Origin: Trichodesmium erythraeum GBRTRLIN201
Lineage (GTDB): Bacteria > Cyanobacteriota > Cyanobacteriia > Cyanobacteriales > Microcoleaceae
Direction: 5' to 3'
Assembly: GCA_018457135.1 (NCBI GenBank)
Contig: JAGGDU010000046.1
Span: forward strand, 15,516 to 79,515
DNA: 64,000 nt
Part shown: piece by piece, positions 1,739-64,000 of the stretch
Numbering within the stretch: the stretch's first letter is position 1
Layout of the letters: each line of letters opens with the position of its first letter
Made by a program: the position numbers and the translations under genes
The notes under the pieces: generated by a model
What the model saw: only the letters and a program-made list of their open reading frames with translations
Told to the model about the DNA's origin: nothing
The model's database searches: none

Positions 1739-1984
1739 ATGAATAAAACACCACGGATAAAAATTCCTAGTTCAGTTAAAAAATATGTGTTTGAGCGGGA
1801 CAATTACCACTGCCAAAGTTGTGGTAAAAGTTCAACCCAAACAGAACTTAGTATAGACCATATTATTCCCCTTGCTAGAGGAGGCAGTAATGATATTAGT
1901 AATTTACAAACTCTCTGTCAAAAATGCAATAAAAAAAAGAAACATCATTTTGATCCCCGCTTTCAACGAAACTTTAGTAATTAA
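1739..1984 (+). CDS. free-standing HNH endonuclease
   Basis: An 81-residue protein that is almost entirely one HNH nuclease domain. Visible features are a zinc-binding Cys pair (CQSCG at about 25-29), the catalytic IDHIIPLARGG segment at about 39-49 with Asp-His, the NLQTLC stretch, and a second Cys pair (LCQKCNKKK). The basic N-terminus and Lys-rich end fit DNA binding. Stand-alone HNH proteins of this size are common in cyanobacteria, as domesticated or mobile nucleases; the substrate cannot be told from sequence. The 3' half of the gene, from the LARGG codons to past the stop, is repeated immediately downstream. Confidence 0.8.
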   Translation: MNKTPRIKIPSSVKKYVFERDNYHCQSCGKSSTQTELSIDHIIPLARGGSNDISNLQTLCQKCNKKKKHHFDPRFQRNFSN

Positions 1985-2189
1985 AGAAAATTGCCATCAA
2001 ACAAAATTAATTTATCAGTAAATATAACATAGCTAGAGGAGGCAGTAATGATATTAGTAATTTACAAACTCTCTGTCAAAAATGCAATAAAAAAAAGAAA
2101 CATCATTTTGATCCCCGCTTTCAACGAAACTTTAGTAATTAAAGAAAATTGCCATCAAACAAAATTAATTTATCAGTAAATATAACATA
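1874..2189. repeat. 158-bp tandem duplication of the HNH gene 3' half
   Basis: Bases 1874-2031 are repeated at 2032-2189 with no difference that I can see. The first copy holds the second half of the HNH reading frame, its stop codon and about 47 bp of flank. The second copy therefore encodes an orphan C-terminal HNH fragment with no start. Near identity indicates a recent event. The remaining spacer to 2358 holds only a weak TCCCACA/TGTGGA hairpin around 2256-2278. Confidence 0.9.
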
Positions 2190-17709: not shown

Positions 17710-19407
17710 ATGAAACCTAGAATCATAGTTTGTGGCCTGGGTCGTACCGGTTACAAAATATTCCGTCTATTAAGACAGCAGGGTGCAACAGTTGTTGGCA
17801 TAAGTGAGCGCCCACTCCGTGGAGAGGGTTCAGAAATTATCATCGGCAACTTTCGATCAGCATCTACTTTATTAGCAGCAGGTATTCAAAGTGCTCATAC
17901 TCTGATTTTAACAGGGAAAGATGAATCTGTTAATTTGGGAGTTTTAATGTTAGCAAGGATTTTGAATCCTAAAATTCGGATTATTAATCGCTTGTTTAAC
18001 ACAAGTTTGGGCGATCGCTTAGATCATACTTTGACTGACCACACAAGCATGAGTGTGTCAGCTTTAGCAGCCCCAGTGTTTGCTTTTGCAGCACTAGGAA
18101 ATCATGCTATTGGTCAGCTACAGATGTACAACCAGACCTGGCCTATGTACGAAGAATTAATCGATCATAATCATCCTTGGGTAGATCGTAAGCTAACTTC
18201 GCTTTGGGATGATCGTGATTTGATGTTAATTTACTACATACCAGTAGGAGATCCAATCGATCTAATCTCTGCAGTAGTACAAGAGCGAGAGTTAAAAGTA
18301 GGCGATCGAGTAATTATTGCTAGCAAACCTAGTATCCGAAATCGCAGACAAAATTTAATTCACAGCTTATTCAGAATATTTGGTAGACTTAGACAATTTC
18401 AGCGACATAGTAAATCTGCAGTCATCCTTAACTTAGCTCTTTTAGTAACAGTTTTAGTTTGTACTATTACTTATATTAGTATTAACCTGAATAATAGTTT
18501 CGTTGATTCTCTGTACTTTACTGTTGGTATGATTACAGGAGCAGGGGGAAATGAAAAAATAGCAGAACAAGCACCAGGTAGTATCAAAATATTTACCTCA
18601 ATAATGATGCTTGTAGGTACAGCGATCGTCGGTATTTGCTATGCACTTCTAAATGACTTTGTATTGGGTACTCGCTTGCAAGAATATTGGGATGCTGCCC
18701 GCATTCCTGTACGCAATCATTATATTATCTGTGGGTTTGGTGGCATTGGTTTACATATTGCTAAGCAACTTATTGCTAGTGGTTATGAAGTAGTAATAAT
18801 AGAACCCGATCCTAAGTGTCGATTTCTCAATATTGCCAGATCAATGAAAATTACTGTGATTGAGGGAGATGCAAGTTTATCTTCGACTTTAGAGGTTGCC
18901 AATATTGAAAAAGCCGAAGCTCTATTAGCTGTAACTGGTAATGATATTATTAACTTGAAAATTGCTTTGAGTGCCAAAGGTCTGATGCCGAAAGTATCAG
19001 TTGTAGTGAGAAATCAAGATCCGCATTTAGCCCTCATGGTACAACAAGTCTTTGAATTTGAATCTGTACTTAGTCCCACAGAATTAGCAGCTCCTGCTTT
19101 TGCTGCAGCAGCTATTGGTGGTAGAATTCTTGGCAATGGAATTACTGCAGATAGTTTGTGGGTAGCATTAGCCACTTTAATTACACCGGGACATCCTTTT
19201 TGTGGTAAACTTACTAAAAATGTGGCTCATAGTGCTGACTTTGTACCTTTGTATATAGAAAGCAACGGAAAAGAAATTCATGGTTGGGATTTGTTATCTG
19301 CGACTCTGAACTCAGGTGATGTTTTGTACTTAACGATGCCAGCTAATAGACTAGACAAACTGTGGAGAAATGCGAGTATACAATTAACGAGTAATGTAGT
19401 TGAATAA
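17710..19407 (+). CDS. RCK-pore-RCK ion channel with atypical filter
   Basis: A 565-residue membrane protein. It has an N-terminal NAD-binding RCK/TrkA-N domain (VCGLGRTGYKIF at 7-18), a two-helix pore module (TM about 238-258 and 293-315) and a second TrkA-N domain (CGFGGIGLHIAKQL from 341). TrkA-C-like parts include DLLSATLNSGDVLYL near the end. In potassium channels the re-entrant loop carries TVGYGD; here the same position reads TVGMITGAGGNE (271-282), so the selectivity filter is not canonical. Such cyanobacterial proteins are annotated as NAD-binding potassium channel proteins, but ion choice is uncertain. The gene is single, with no transporter partner. The frame and both nucleotide loops are intact. 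Confidence 0.85.
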   Translation: MKPRIIVCGLGRTGYKIFRLLRQQGATVVGISERPLRGEGSEIIIGNFRSASTLLAAGIQSAHTLILTGKDESVNLGVLMLARILNPKIRIINRLFNTSLGDRLDHTLTDHTSMSVSALAAPVFAFAALGNHAIGQLQMYNQTWPMYEELIDHNHPWVDRKLTSLWDDRDLMLIYYIPVGDPIDLISAVVQERELKVGDRVIIASKPSIRNRRQNLIHSLFRIFGRLRQFQRHSKSAVILNLALLVTVLVCTITYISINLNNSFVDSLYFTVGMITGAGGNEKIAEQAPGSIKIFTSIMMLVGTAIVGICYALLNDFVLGTRLQEYWDAARIPVRNHYIICGFGGIGLHIAKQLIASGYEVVIIEPDPKCRFLNIARSMKITVIEGDASLSSTLEVANIEKAEALLAVTGNDIINLKIALSAKGLMPKVSVVVRNQDPHLALMVQQVFEFESVLSPTELAAPAFAAAAIGGRILGNGITADSLWVALATLITPGHPFCGKLTKNVAHSADFVPLYIESNGKEIHGWDLLSATLNSGDVLYLTMPANRLDKLWRNASIQLTSNVVE

Positions 19408-62639: not shown

Positions 62640-62716
62640 GGTGAAAATAATTTAATACAGCAATTTTCATGATTAGTAAACTAAAGTTGTGACGGTGCAT
62701 GGAACGTTCCTAGAGA

Positions 62717-63270
62717 TTTTTGGTTTTGATAATGTGGTTTATCTATCTAAAAAGTGCTGTAACAGTTAGACCTATTCTCCTATTCTTTGAATAGCAAATT
62801 TTTTGAACAACTCTCAATAATTTTTCCTTCATAATTACGAGGTAAACTTTCTACTTTTAGCCAATATTTAGGCTGCTTAAATTTGCTCAATTTTTTATCA
62901 ATAGCAGCGCACCAATTTTTCCTATAAACTTCAAAATAATTACCCACATTTATGAGAATTTACAACCTGATGCCAAATATTTATCTGCACATATTTTTGG
63001 TTTTGATAATGTGGTTTATGTATTTTAAAAGTGCTGTAATAGTTAGACCTATTCTCCTATTCTTTGAATAGCAATTTCTTTTAAAAACTCTCGATTAATT
63101 TTTCCTTGAGAATTACGAGGTAAACTTTCTACTCTTAGCCAATATTTAGGCTGCTTAAATTTGCTCAATTTTTTATCAATAGCAGCTAACAACTTTTCCT
63201 TAGAAACTTCAAAATAATTACCCACATAAACAGCAGTTACAACTTCACCCCAATATTTATCTGCTAAGCC
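62717..63270. repeat. 277-bp tandem duplication including the menE 3' end
   Basis: Bases 62717-62993 resemble 62994-63270. Each starts with TTTTTGGTTTTGATAATGTG and continues through AAAGTGCTGTAA, the menE stop and the last 70 or so codons. The left copy has accumulated substitutions and small indels; the right copy is part of the intact menE gene. Confidence 0.88.
62757..62990 (-). pseudogene. orphan duplicated menE C-terminal fragment
   Basis: The minus strand contains a diverged copy of the menE tail, for example KLSKFKQPKYWLKVESLPRN, KEKLLAA-like and the final codons. In-frame changes (GGAAAAA to a stop-bearing FVQKIC-like end) and indels break it. It lies 3' of the real gene, so it is the product of the tandem duplication, not a second gene. 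Confidence 0.75.
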
Positions 63271-64000
63271 AATTACACAAATATCATCAACTAAACCAGT
63301 TGTCAAAATAGCAGCTTCAACTTCTGCCGGAAAAACATTTTCCCCACCAGTAATAATTTTTTGACTACTACGACCTACTATTTTTAAGTAACCTTGATGA
63401 TCAAAAAATCCTAAATCATCTGTTACTAGACTTTCATAATTATTAAATATATCAGGATAATACCCTAACGCCAAAGAATTAGCTTTAATGCTAATATTAC
63501 CAATTTGATTTTGATATAATATTTTCCCACTTTCATTTTTCACAATAATTTTAGCGTGAGGTAATACTTGACCGTTACTATTATTTCCTGCCAAAAAATC
63601 TTGTGGTTTAAGAGTCGCAACTTGAGAAGCAGTTTCTGTCATTCCATAAGTTGGAGCTAATTTAATTTGATATTTTCTTGCAGCATCAAATAATTCTTCC
63701 CAAGCTGCGGAACCACCTAAAAGCACTATTTTAAAATTAGATAACCAGTTAGCTGTTTCTGCCTTTTGTAACAAATGGTGTAACTGAGTTGGTACTAGGG
63801 AAATGAAAAATTCATTGGGGTTAATATTCCATTCTTTTTGTTCTAAAATATCTTTATAGGATGGCAAAATTATTAAATTTCCCCCAGTAGTAAAGGAGCG
63901 TATAAACTGCATTAAACCACTGACATGATATAGGGGTAAAACACAAAATGAATTAATTTCTTGTACTTGGAAATATCCTTGGAAACCTCTTACAGATGAC
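63049..64000 (-). CDS. menE: 2-succinylbenzoate-CoA ligase, C-terminal part (runs off window)
   Basis: At least 316 residues of an adenylate-forming ligase that activates o-succinylbenzoate to its CoA thioester in phylloquinone synthesis. The frame is open to the window edge (SSVRGFQGYFQVQEINSFC ... LPLYHVSGLMQF), so the true start lies beyond 64000. Motifs are PTYGMTETASQVATL (A5-type), KIVGRSSQKIITGGENVFPA (A8) and the catalytic Lys in NSQGKINREFL (A10). HVSGLMQF is typical of MenE. The DHNA-CoA thioesterase gene is 3 kb away, which supports the pathway. The 3' end is tandemly duplicated downstream. Confidence 0.88.
   Translation of the reverse strand, partial: SSVRGFQGYFQVQEINSFCVLPLYHVSGLMQFIRSFTTGGNLIILPSYKDILEQKEWNINPNEFFISLVPTQLHHLLQKAETANWLSNFKIVLLGGSAAWEELFDAARKYQIKLAPTYGMTETASQVATLKPQDFLAGNNSNGQVLPHAKIIVKNESGKILYQNQIGNISIKANSLALGYYPDIFNNYESLVTDDLGFFDHQGYLKIVGRSSQKIITGGENVFPAEVEAAILTTGLVDDICVIGLADKYWGEVVTAVYVGNYFEVSKEKLLAAIDKKLSKFKQPKYWLRVESLPRNSQGKINREFLKEIAIQRIGE

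What the first reader, a model, noticed from the sequence alone, without database searches (positions are those of the whole stretch)
18490..18570. Channel with non-canonical selectivity filter TVGMITGAGGNE
Seen: a two-helix pore between two RCK domains, but the filter lacks the TVGYGD signature. Known: the YG pair sets potassium choice. Inference: it may pass other ions or be non-selective, or work as a sensor. All other parts look intact, so it is unlikely to be decay.
Basis: partly seen in the sequence, partly recalled or inferred. Interest (0 to 1): 0.55.

Follow-up and report, generated by a model that had tools for sequence, protein, structure and literature searches.

The report
Cyanobacterial RCK channel without potassium filter
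Many cyanobacteria carry the same ion-channel-like protein, sandwiched between two sensor domains, whose ion filter is unchanged in every copy read but is not the usual potassium filter, so it probably lets other ions through and can be tested directly.

Summary
Window 17710-19407 (+) encodes 565 aa laid out RCK - TM1 - pore loop - TM2 - RCK; TVGMITGAGGNE is residues 271-282. It is not a single mutated copy: in 119 distinct sequences (window included) T276-G277-A278-G279-G280 never vary and residue 282 is always Glu or Asp, also in the 56 found by whole-protein search. All five Synechocystis genomes held carry it. A paralogous cyanobacterial family and two small actinobacterial groups share the layout; none of the members read has TVGYGD, and canonical pore-RCK channels fall outside with 100/99 support (long branches). 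The pore is homologous to canonical channels, hinge glycines are kept, and RCK2 keeps most of a nucleotide-binding signature. Best reading: an RCK-gated tetrameric cation channel that gave up K+-type selectivity (non-selective, or admitting Na+/Ca2+), comparable in principle to plant CASTOR, but differing in filter and layout. No ion flux was tested; a K+ channel with a reduced filter and a non-conducting sensor remain possible.

The parts
17710..19407 (+). gene: RCK - TM1 - pore helix - filter - TM2 - RCK channel-like protein, 565 aa
   Evidence: Pfam; AF2 model
17710..18339 (+). N-terminal RCK domain (RCK1), residues 1-210; TrkA_N match at 17722-18018; G9 in 102, G11 in 105, G14 in 119 of 119; no fixed acid at the end of the second strand (residue 33: D 53, H 36, others)
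18418..18483 (+). TM1, residues 237-258 (limits set by eye within helix 217-258 of the pore model), preceded by a strongly basic stretch
18499..18537 (+). pore helix, residues 264-276, ending in invariant T276
18538..18555 (+). selectivity-filter equivalent GAGGNE, residues 277-282, opposite TVG[YF]xE
18577..18666 (+). TM2, residues 290-319, with invariant G303 and G308, aligned with conserved glycines of the canonical family
18712..19365 (+). C-terminal RCK domain (RCK2), residues 335-552; G342 119, G344 86 (Ser 33), G347 117, E365 114 (Asp 5), D387 109 of 119: most of a nucleotide-binding RCK signature

Best explanation
A cyanobacterial family of tetrameric two-helix cation channels gated by their own RCK ring, in which the K+ filter has been replaced by a glycine-rich one, G-A-G-G-x-[Glu/Asp]. 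Shown by sequence: layout, homology of the pore to K+ channels, and strict conservation of the new filter. Inferred: four copies form a pore with both RCK domains in the cytosol; RCK2 binds an adenine nucleotide (NAD(H), ADP or ATP) and RCK1 acts mainly as a structural half of the ring; ligand binding bends TM2 at G303 and opens the pore. Without the Thr75 side chain and the aromatic at Tyr78 (KcsA numbers, recalled), the filter should be wider and less rigid, with a ring of four Glu/Asp at its outer mouth. It should admit cations with weak K+ preference: non-selective, or Na+/Ca2+ permeable.
For: T276, G277, A278, G279, G280 invariant and 282 always E (78) or D (41) in 119 of 119 distinct sequences, window included; same five invariant, 282 E 40 / D 16, in the 56 found by whole-protein search. 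Residues 266-280 are the most conserved 15-mer of the protein. Against four close orthologues codons 266-282 show 13 synonymous and 0 non-synonymous differences, the whole gene 474 and 244 (pairs not independent). Ungapped register against canonical TVG[YF]xE channels; pore-only profile comparison with them E 1e-6, probability 91. Family profile matches MthK (E 6.8e-11) and NaK (E 4.3e-5) by sequence. Pore-only model nearest to NaK (VIA Z 12.7, rmsd 5.0 A, 102 residues); MthK Z 11.3, 2.4 A, 82 residues. G303 and G308 invariant. RCK2 nucleotide signature, with Ser for G344 in 33 of 119. Mean net charge +7.65 before TM1, against -1.33 and -0.97 in the outer loops. Analogy: CASTOR, an RCK channel without TVGYG, is Ca2+-selective and needs a filter Asp (PMC6697748, passages).
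Against: No conductance data. A tyrosine-to-alanine change in the GYGD of a cyanobacterial K+ channel (SynK) gave no current (PMC2853561, passage), so loss of the aromatic need not give a working non-selective pore. AF2 confidence around the filter is low in the full model (segment 278-280 under 50); no tetramer could be modelled. Foldseek's best E for the pore-only model is 0.0024, with none at 0.001 or better, and structural likeness to NaK says nothing on selectivity, since K+-selective MthK and NaK2K stand close by. Conservation fits a sensor as well; a stretch of RCK2 (window from 463, 0.31 bits) is nearly as conserved.
Confidence: 0.48

Rival explanations
1. K+-preferring channel with a reduced filter: backbone carbonyls plus the single essential glycine (G279 = first Gly of GYG) suffice, as in Trk/Ktr/HKT pore loops, so the protein is still a moderately K+-selective channel.
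For: In Trk/Ktr/HKT each pore loop keeps one conserved glycine, equivalent to the first Gly of GYG (PMC9898762, passage); G279 is at that position and invariant. The host KtrB loops read NNAGF, RTAGF, VTGL and ATVGL. The window protein touches the TrkH model 2a38 at residues 225-306, E 0.0044, 16.2 bits against a cut-off of 331. Best pore-to-KtrB profile match is repeat D3, E 0.0079.
Against: Pore profiles match the four KtrB repeats at probability 0.2-5 only, against 91 for canonical channels. This test has little power: the control, canonical pores against the same repeats, gives 0.3-1.6. Trk pores are asymmetric; four identical GAGG loops are not the same surface (inference).
Confidence: 0.25
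2. Non-conducting membrane sensor: the pore-like unit anchors and tetramerises two RCK rings that read a nucleotide and signal or regulate another transporter.
For: No TVGYGD; a SynK GAGD mutant was expressed but silent (PMC2853561). Actinobacterial relatives have still less filter-like loops, and the Pfam pore model does not match them or family B at E 0.01. Two RCK domains.
Against: A dead pore should drift, yet pore helix and filter are the most conserved stretch of the protein, though one RCK2 stretch comes close. TM2 hinge glycines and the acid at 282 are kept. No neighbour family in more than 16 of 80 loci that it might act on (weak, partners need not be neighbours).
Confidence: 0.22
3. 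Decayed or single mutated K+ channel.
For: Broken copies exist in single genomes: G010 with an in-frame TGA, G179 in two adjacent frames.
Against: Intact open frame here; invariant filter in 119 of 119 distinct sequences; family A is one group with 100/100 support (25 rows); 5 of 5 Synechocystis genomes carry it.
Confidence: 0.02

Closest known systems
NaK (Bacillus cereus non-selective cation channel)
   Same: Two-helix pore; nearest solved fold to the pore-only model; matched by the family profile.
   Different: NaK filter is TVGDG and it has no RCK domains (both recalled); here GAGGx[E/D] between two RCK domains.
MthK / GsuK RCK-gated K+ channels
   Same: Two-helix pore plus RCK domains; profile match of MthK through pore and RCK2, structure matches.
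   Different: Pore precedes the RCK domain(s), and MthK has a TVGYGD filter (recalled). Here one RCK lies before TM1 and the filter is changed.
CASTOR / POLLUX / DMI1 plant nuclear Ca2+ channels
   Same: RCK-gated, no TVGYG, acidic residue in the filter; CASTOR is a Ca2+-selective channel (PMC6697748, passages); gating ring listed at Z 21.4, rmsd 11.9 A.
   Different: Filter ADS(A)GNHA; both RCK domains follow the pore; four predicted TM segments.
Trk/Ktr/HKT transporters
   Same: One conserved glycine per loop, the first of GYG (PMC9898762); controlled by RCK proteins.
   Different: Four pore loops in one chain, RCK on a separate subunit; pore profiles do not match (a test of low power).
Canonical cyanobacterial pore-RCK channels (about 356 aa, TVG[YF]xE)
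   Same: Homologous pore and RCK2, ungapped filter register.
   Different: Keep TVG[YF]; lack the N-terminal RCK; separate group in the tree.

Membership tests
Canonical K+ channels | TVGYGD-type filter | tested here: not met
   GAGGx[E/D] at those positions in 119 of 119 distinct sequences
Canonical K+ channels | two TM helices with a re-entrant pore helix and filter loop | tested here: met
   Profile matches to MthK and NaK and to canonical channels; pore-only AF2 model, mean pLDDT 76.7, nearest NaK
Canonical K+ channels | K+ selectivity | not testable with these tools
   needs electrophysiology or flux assays
RCK-gated 2TM channels (MthK, GsuK) | RCK domain(s) in the same chain | tested here: met
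   two TrkA_N stretches; fold matches to TrkA, GsuK, MthK
RCK-gated 2TM channels (MthK, GsuK) | pore first, RCK domain(s) after it | tested here: not met
   RCK1 lies before TM1; the rule itself is recalled
RCK-gated 2TM channels (MthK, GsuK) | tetramer | not testable with these tools
   single-chain models only
CASTOR/POLLUX/DMI1 | filter ADS(A)GNHA | tested here: not met
   GAGGNE; motif from PMC6697748
CASTOR/POLLUX/DMI1 | pore followed by two RCK domains | tested here: not met
CASTOR/POLLUX/DMI1 | Ca2+ selectivity | not testable with these tools
   needs recording
Trk/Ktr/HKT | four pore loops in one chain | tested here: not met
   one pore in 565 aa
Trk/Ktr/HKT | pore-loop profile | tested here: inconclusive
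   hhalign probability 0.2-5 against four host-group KtrB repeats, but the control with canonical K+ pores also gives only 0.3-1.6
Trk/Ktr/HKT | conserved glycine at the first Gly of GYG | tested here: met
   G279 invariant; criterion from PMC9898762
NaK | TVGDG filter, no RCK | tested here: not met
   NaK's features are recalled

The most novel reading that the evidence does not exclude
RCK - two-helix pore - RCK proteins are a class of their own, spread over Cyanobacteria and Actinomycetota, in which the K+ filter was given up and replaced by lineage-specific filters (GAGGx[E/D]; L-GG[YF]x[D/E]; a loop around [AT][IM][GN]xPA; [TA]VGP). The cyanobacterial GAGG family is a nucleotide-gated, non-K+-selective (possibly Ca2+-admitting) bacterial channel: a prokaryotic counterpart of what CASTOR does in plants, missed because searches look for TxGYG.
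Probability: 0.33. Interest if true: 0.75.

Novelty: new variant of a known kind. Interest (0 to 1): 0.5.

Why it matters
The TVGYG rule is a standard way to find K+-channel-like genes; SynK, for one, was found by it (PMC2853561, passage). Here a pore that is homologous to K+ channels keeps a different filter without change in every orthologue read. If it conducts, it shows another natural solution for a four-fold filter under RCK control, and gives cyanobacteria a candidate Na+/Ca2+ or non-selective pathway. It is directly testable: all five Synechocystis genomes held carry it. The published list of five channel homologues in Synechocystis PCC 6803 (PMC13099474, passages) probably does not include it (inference, from gene order and lengths that I recall); the Pfam pore model finds it in only 1 of 4 Synechocystis genomes searched.

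Tried and rejected
Trk/Ktr/HKT kinship: 22 KtrB sequences from related genomes were cut into four repeats and compared with the pore: no convincing match, but the canonical-pore control fails as well, so the test is inconclusive; the glycine likeness is kept as an analogy. On recheck I moved 0.02-0.03 of odds from the best reading to this rival for that reason. Sll0536 of Synechocystis as the studied orthologue: in Synechocystis genomes a 356-359 aa GVGYGE pore-RCK protein lies beside an ammonium-transporter-like gene, which fits sll0536 only by recalled gene order; so sll0536 is probably not this family. PCC 6803's own chromosome was not identified among the genomes held, so presence there is inferred from the genus. 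Operon partner: in 80 loci with up to 8 kb of flank (many cut by contig ends) the commonest neighbour family occurs in 16. Relatives outside Cyanobacteria were sought only in plasmid records. The one scan of genome contigs lists the best 80 of 370 relatives, all cyanobacterial as I read their titles, and seeds on VGMITGAG or [RQ]MLIYYLP, so those 80 are poor witnesses for filter variants; counts were repeated without them. Pfam's pore model does not match family B or the two actinobacterial proteins scanned at E 0.01, and in the Rhodococcus protein Pfam sees only the second RCK; their pore and first RCK rest on profile alignments, and no TM prediction was run on the actinobacterial ones. Structure matches: Z for the pore is about 11-13, which for helical bundles may be a common arrangement; the sequence profile match carries the argument. 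Papers looked into without use: PMC9025972 (passages; a TxGYG channel), PMC4565861 (passages). Eight literature searches (open-licence papers, listings capped at 10-20) showed no paper on this family; TGAGG plus selectivity filter gave four unrelated papers.

Full report
WHAT IS THERE. The gene at 17710-19407 (+) encodes 565 residues. Pfam finds two TrkA_N stretches, and Ion_trans_2 between them at 22.4 bits, just under its 22.5 cut-off; in the six-frame search of the genome the same pore reaches 26.2 bits. The AF2 model with 25 orthologues (mean pLDDT 77.9) gives an RCK fold, a long TM1, a pore helix, a loop, TM2 and a second RCK fold; the membrane part has only low to moderate confidence (blocks of 52-67, residues 278-280 under 50). 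A second model of residues 216-332 alone with 102 sequences (mean pLDDT 76.7) shows TM1, pore helix 264-276, a coil, a short helix at 282-286 and TM2 290-319. Its nearest solved structures are NaK pores, then MthK, SthK and GsuK (best Foldseek E 0.0024, none at 0.001 or better; best Z 12.7). By sequence profile the family matches MthK over 236-436 (E 6.8e-11 for the best entry) and NaK over the pore (E 4.3e-5 at best).

REGISTER OF THE FILTER. Profile alignment with 19 canonical cyanobacterial pore-RCK proteins is ungapped from Y269 to E282 and sets TVG[YF]xE opposite G277-A-G-G-x-E282. In KcsA numbers (recalled) this is T75 to Gly, V76 to Ala, G77 kept, Y78 to Gly, G79 free, D80 to Glu/Asp; T74 is kept as T276. 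TM2 glycines G303 and G308 fall on an invariant and a nearly invariant glycine of the canonical family.

CONSERVATION. Of 59 genomes searched among relatives, the own one included, 41 have a full-length orthologue (54-100% identity), one more is cut by a contig end (G003) and one is broken (G010); 56 of 59 have some match at E 0.001 or better, which includes paralogues. Of 292 genomes drawn from the phylum, 75 match at E 1e-60 or better, two of them with an insertion in RCK1 (G087, G098) and one split into two frames (G179) (its 30 best rows carry loci). 142 loci were read, all covering query residues 8 or lower to 535 or higher; they hold 119 distinct sequences, the window's included: Y269, F270, V272, G273, T276, G277, A278, G279, G280 never vary; 282 is E in 78 and D in 41; 281 is free (N 72, Q 18, K 13, others). 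Mean column entropy is 0.34 bits over 266-282 against 1.09 for the protein, and 266-280 is the lowest 15-residue window (0.19); a stretch of RCK2 from 463 comes next (0.31). Because 80 of the loci came from a scan seeded on VGMITGAG or [RQ]MLIYYLP, I repeated the count on the 56 sequences from whole-protein search: the same five residues T276-G280 are invariant and 282 is E 40, D 16. Four close orthologues differ from the window in 266-282 only by silent changes.

RELATIVES. A paralogous cyanobacterial family B (37 loci read, 33 distinct sequences; found in 58 of 148 genomes of the order at E 1e-60 or better; not in this host) is homologous along its length (hhalign probability 100, E 7.8e-58). 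Its filter is L-GG[YF]x[D/E], one residue shorter than canonical, with exceptions LGQYGE and GGFDN. Plasmid records gave two actinobacterial groups of similar layout: Streptomyces (4 read; loops AIGDPA, AINHPA, AINEPA, TMGDPA) and Rhodococcus/S. nigrescens (3 read; TVGP or AVGP). Family A matches one protein of each at probability 99.7 over 41-552 and 99.4 over 64-439; Pfam's pore model matches neither of them nor the family B protein at E 0.01, and sees one RCK only in the Rhodococcus protein. A tree of pore plus following RCK, 80 rows, splits the 59 RCK-pore-RCK rows from the 21 pore-RCK rows with 100/99 support, and family A is one group with 100/100; A and B as sisters have only 85/40. The tree is unrooted, and the program warns of long branches and of odd composition in all seven actinobacterial rows.

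GATING DOMAINS AND TOPOLOGY. RCK2 has G342 in 119, G344 in 86 (Ser in 33), G347 in 117, an acid at 365 (E 114, D 5) and D387 in 109 of 119: most of what nucleotide-binding RCK domains show (criterion recalled). RCK1 has G9 in 102, G11 in 105 and G14 in 119, but no fixed acid at the matching place. The stretch before TM1 is strongly basic, mean net charge +7.65, and the outer loops slightly acidic, so both RCK domains should be cytosolic and the filter open to the periplasm (inference).

CONTEXT. No neighbour family occurs in more than 16 of 80 loci. The host has four other Ion_trans_2 proteins, read by eye as cyclic-nucleotide, voltage, glutamate-receptor and Kir types, three with TVGYGD and one TIGYGA; of the seven TrkA_N places of the host only the two in this gene flank a pore, by eye. 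G125 is Synechocystis sp. PCC 7338: 3001 bases of its second contig are 100% identical to plasmid NZ_CP054307.1, of the same length, 81,333. It carries family A (568 aa) and family B. All 5 Synechocystis genomes held carry family A with TGAGG[KQ]E. The Pfam pore model, asked of 4 of them, finds this gene in G041 (23.8 bits, above cut-off) but not in G125, G129 or G142; in G125 it finds five other proteins above cut-off and one weak place.

LITERATURE. [quoted passage not shown] PMC2853561 (passages) found SynK by searching T-X-G-[YFL]-G-D, a search that would miss this family, and reports that a GAGD mutant gave no current. PMC6697748 (passages): CASTOR lacks TVGYG, is Ca2+-selective, and its filter mutant D265N shows no current. 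PMC9898762 (passages): each Trk pore loop keeps a conserved glycine, the first of GYG. Eight searches of open papers showed none on this family.

READING. Shown: layout, pore homology, filter register, strict conservation, breadth in cyanobacteria, and relatives of like layout without TVGYGD in two phyla (all those read). Inferred: tetramer, conduction, nucleotide gating, loss of K+ selectivity. The conservation argues against decay and, less strongly, against a dead pore. What ion passes cannot be told from sequence; a wide glycine filter with an acidic ring makes weak selectivity or divalent permeation the first bet, and a Trk-like K+ preference the second.

Noticed in passing
L042-L046, L048, L050, L164-L193 (family B): A second cyanobacterial RCK-pore-RCK family of about 650-770 aa with filter LLLGG[YF]x[D/E] (also LGQYGE, GGFDN, GGYPD), one residue shorter than TVGYGD.
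   Followed up: partly
L215, L217-L219 (Streptomyces); L216, L220, L221 (Rhodococcus, S. nigrescens): Plasmid-borne actinobacterial proteins of similar layout with loops unlike a K+ filter, annotated as NAD-binding proteins or not annotated.
   Followed up: partly
P0002 (L202), P0003 (L209), L213, L248, L254, L256: A pore-RCK family with GVGYGE or GVGYDE (Thr of TVGYG replaced by Gly), in Synechocystis beside an ammonium-transporter-like gene; possibly Sll0536 (recalled gene order).
   Followed up: partly
G010:C713:7360-9048; G179:C75:4663-6346: Broken copies of the gene in single genomes: an in-frame stop with displaced pieces, and a split into two adjacent frames.
   Followed up: no
G087:C3:143672-145501; G098:C22:21489-23306: Orthologues with an extra stretch inserted around residues 181-188, giving open frames of 688 and 671 aa.
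   Followed up: no
window 1874-2189: Exact tandem duplication of 158 bases (two copies, 100%), perhaps recent or an assembly artefact.
   Followed up: no
window 62716-63264: Tandem repeat with a period of about 277 bases, two copies, about 90% alike, overlapping an ORF at 63049-63912.
   Followed up: no
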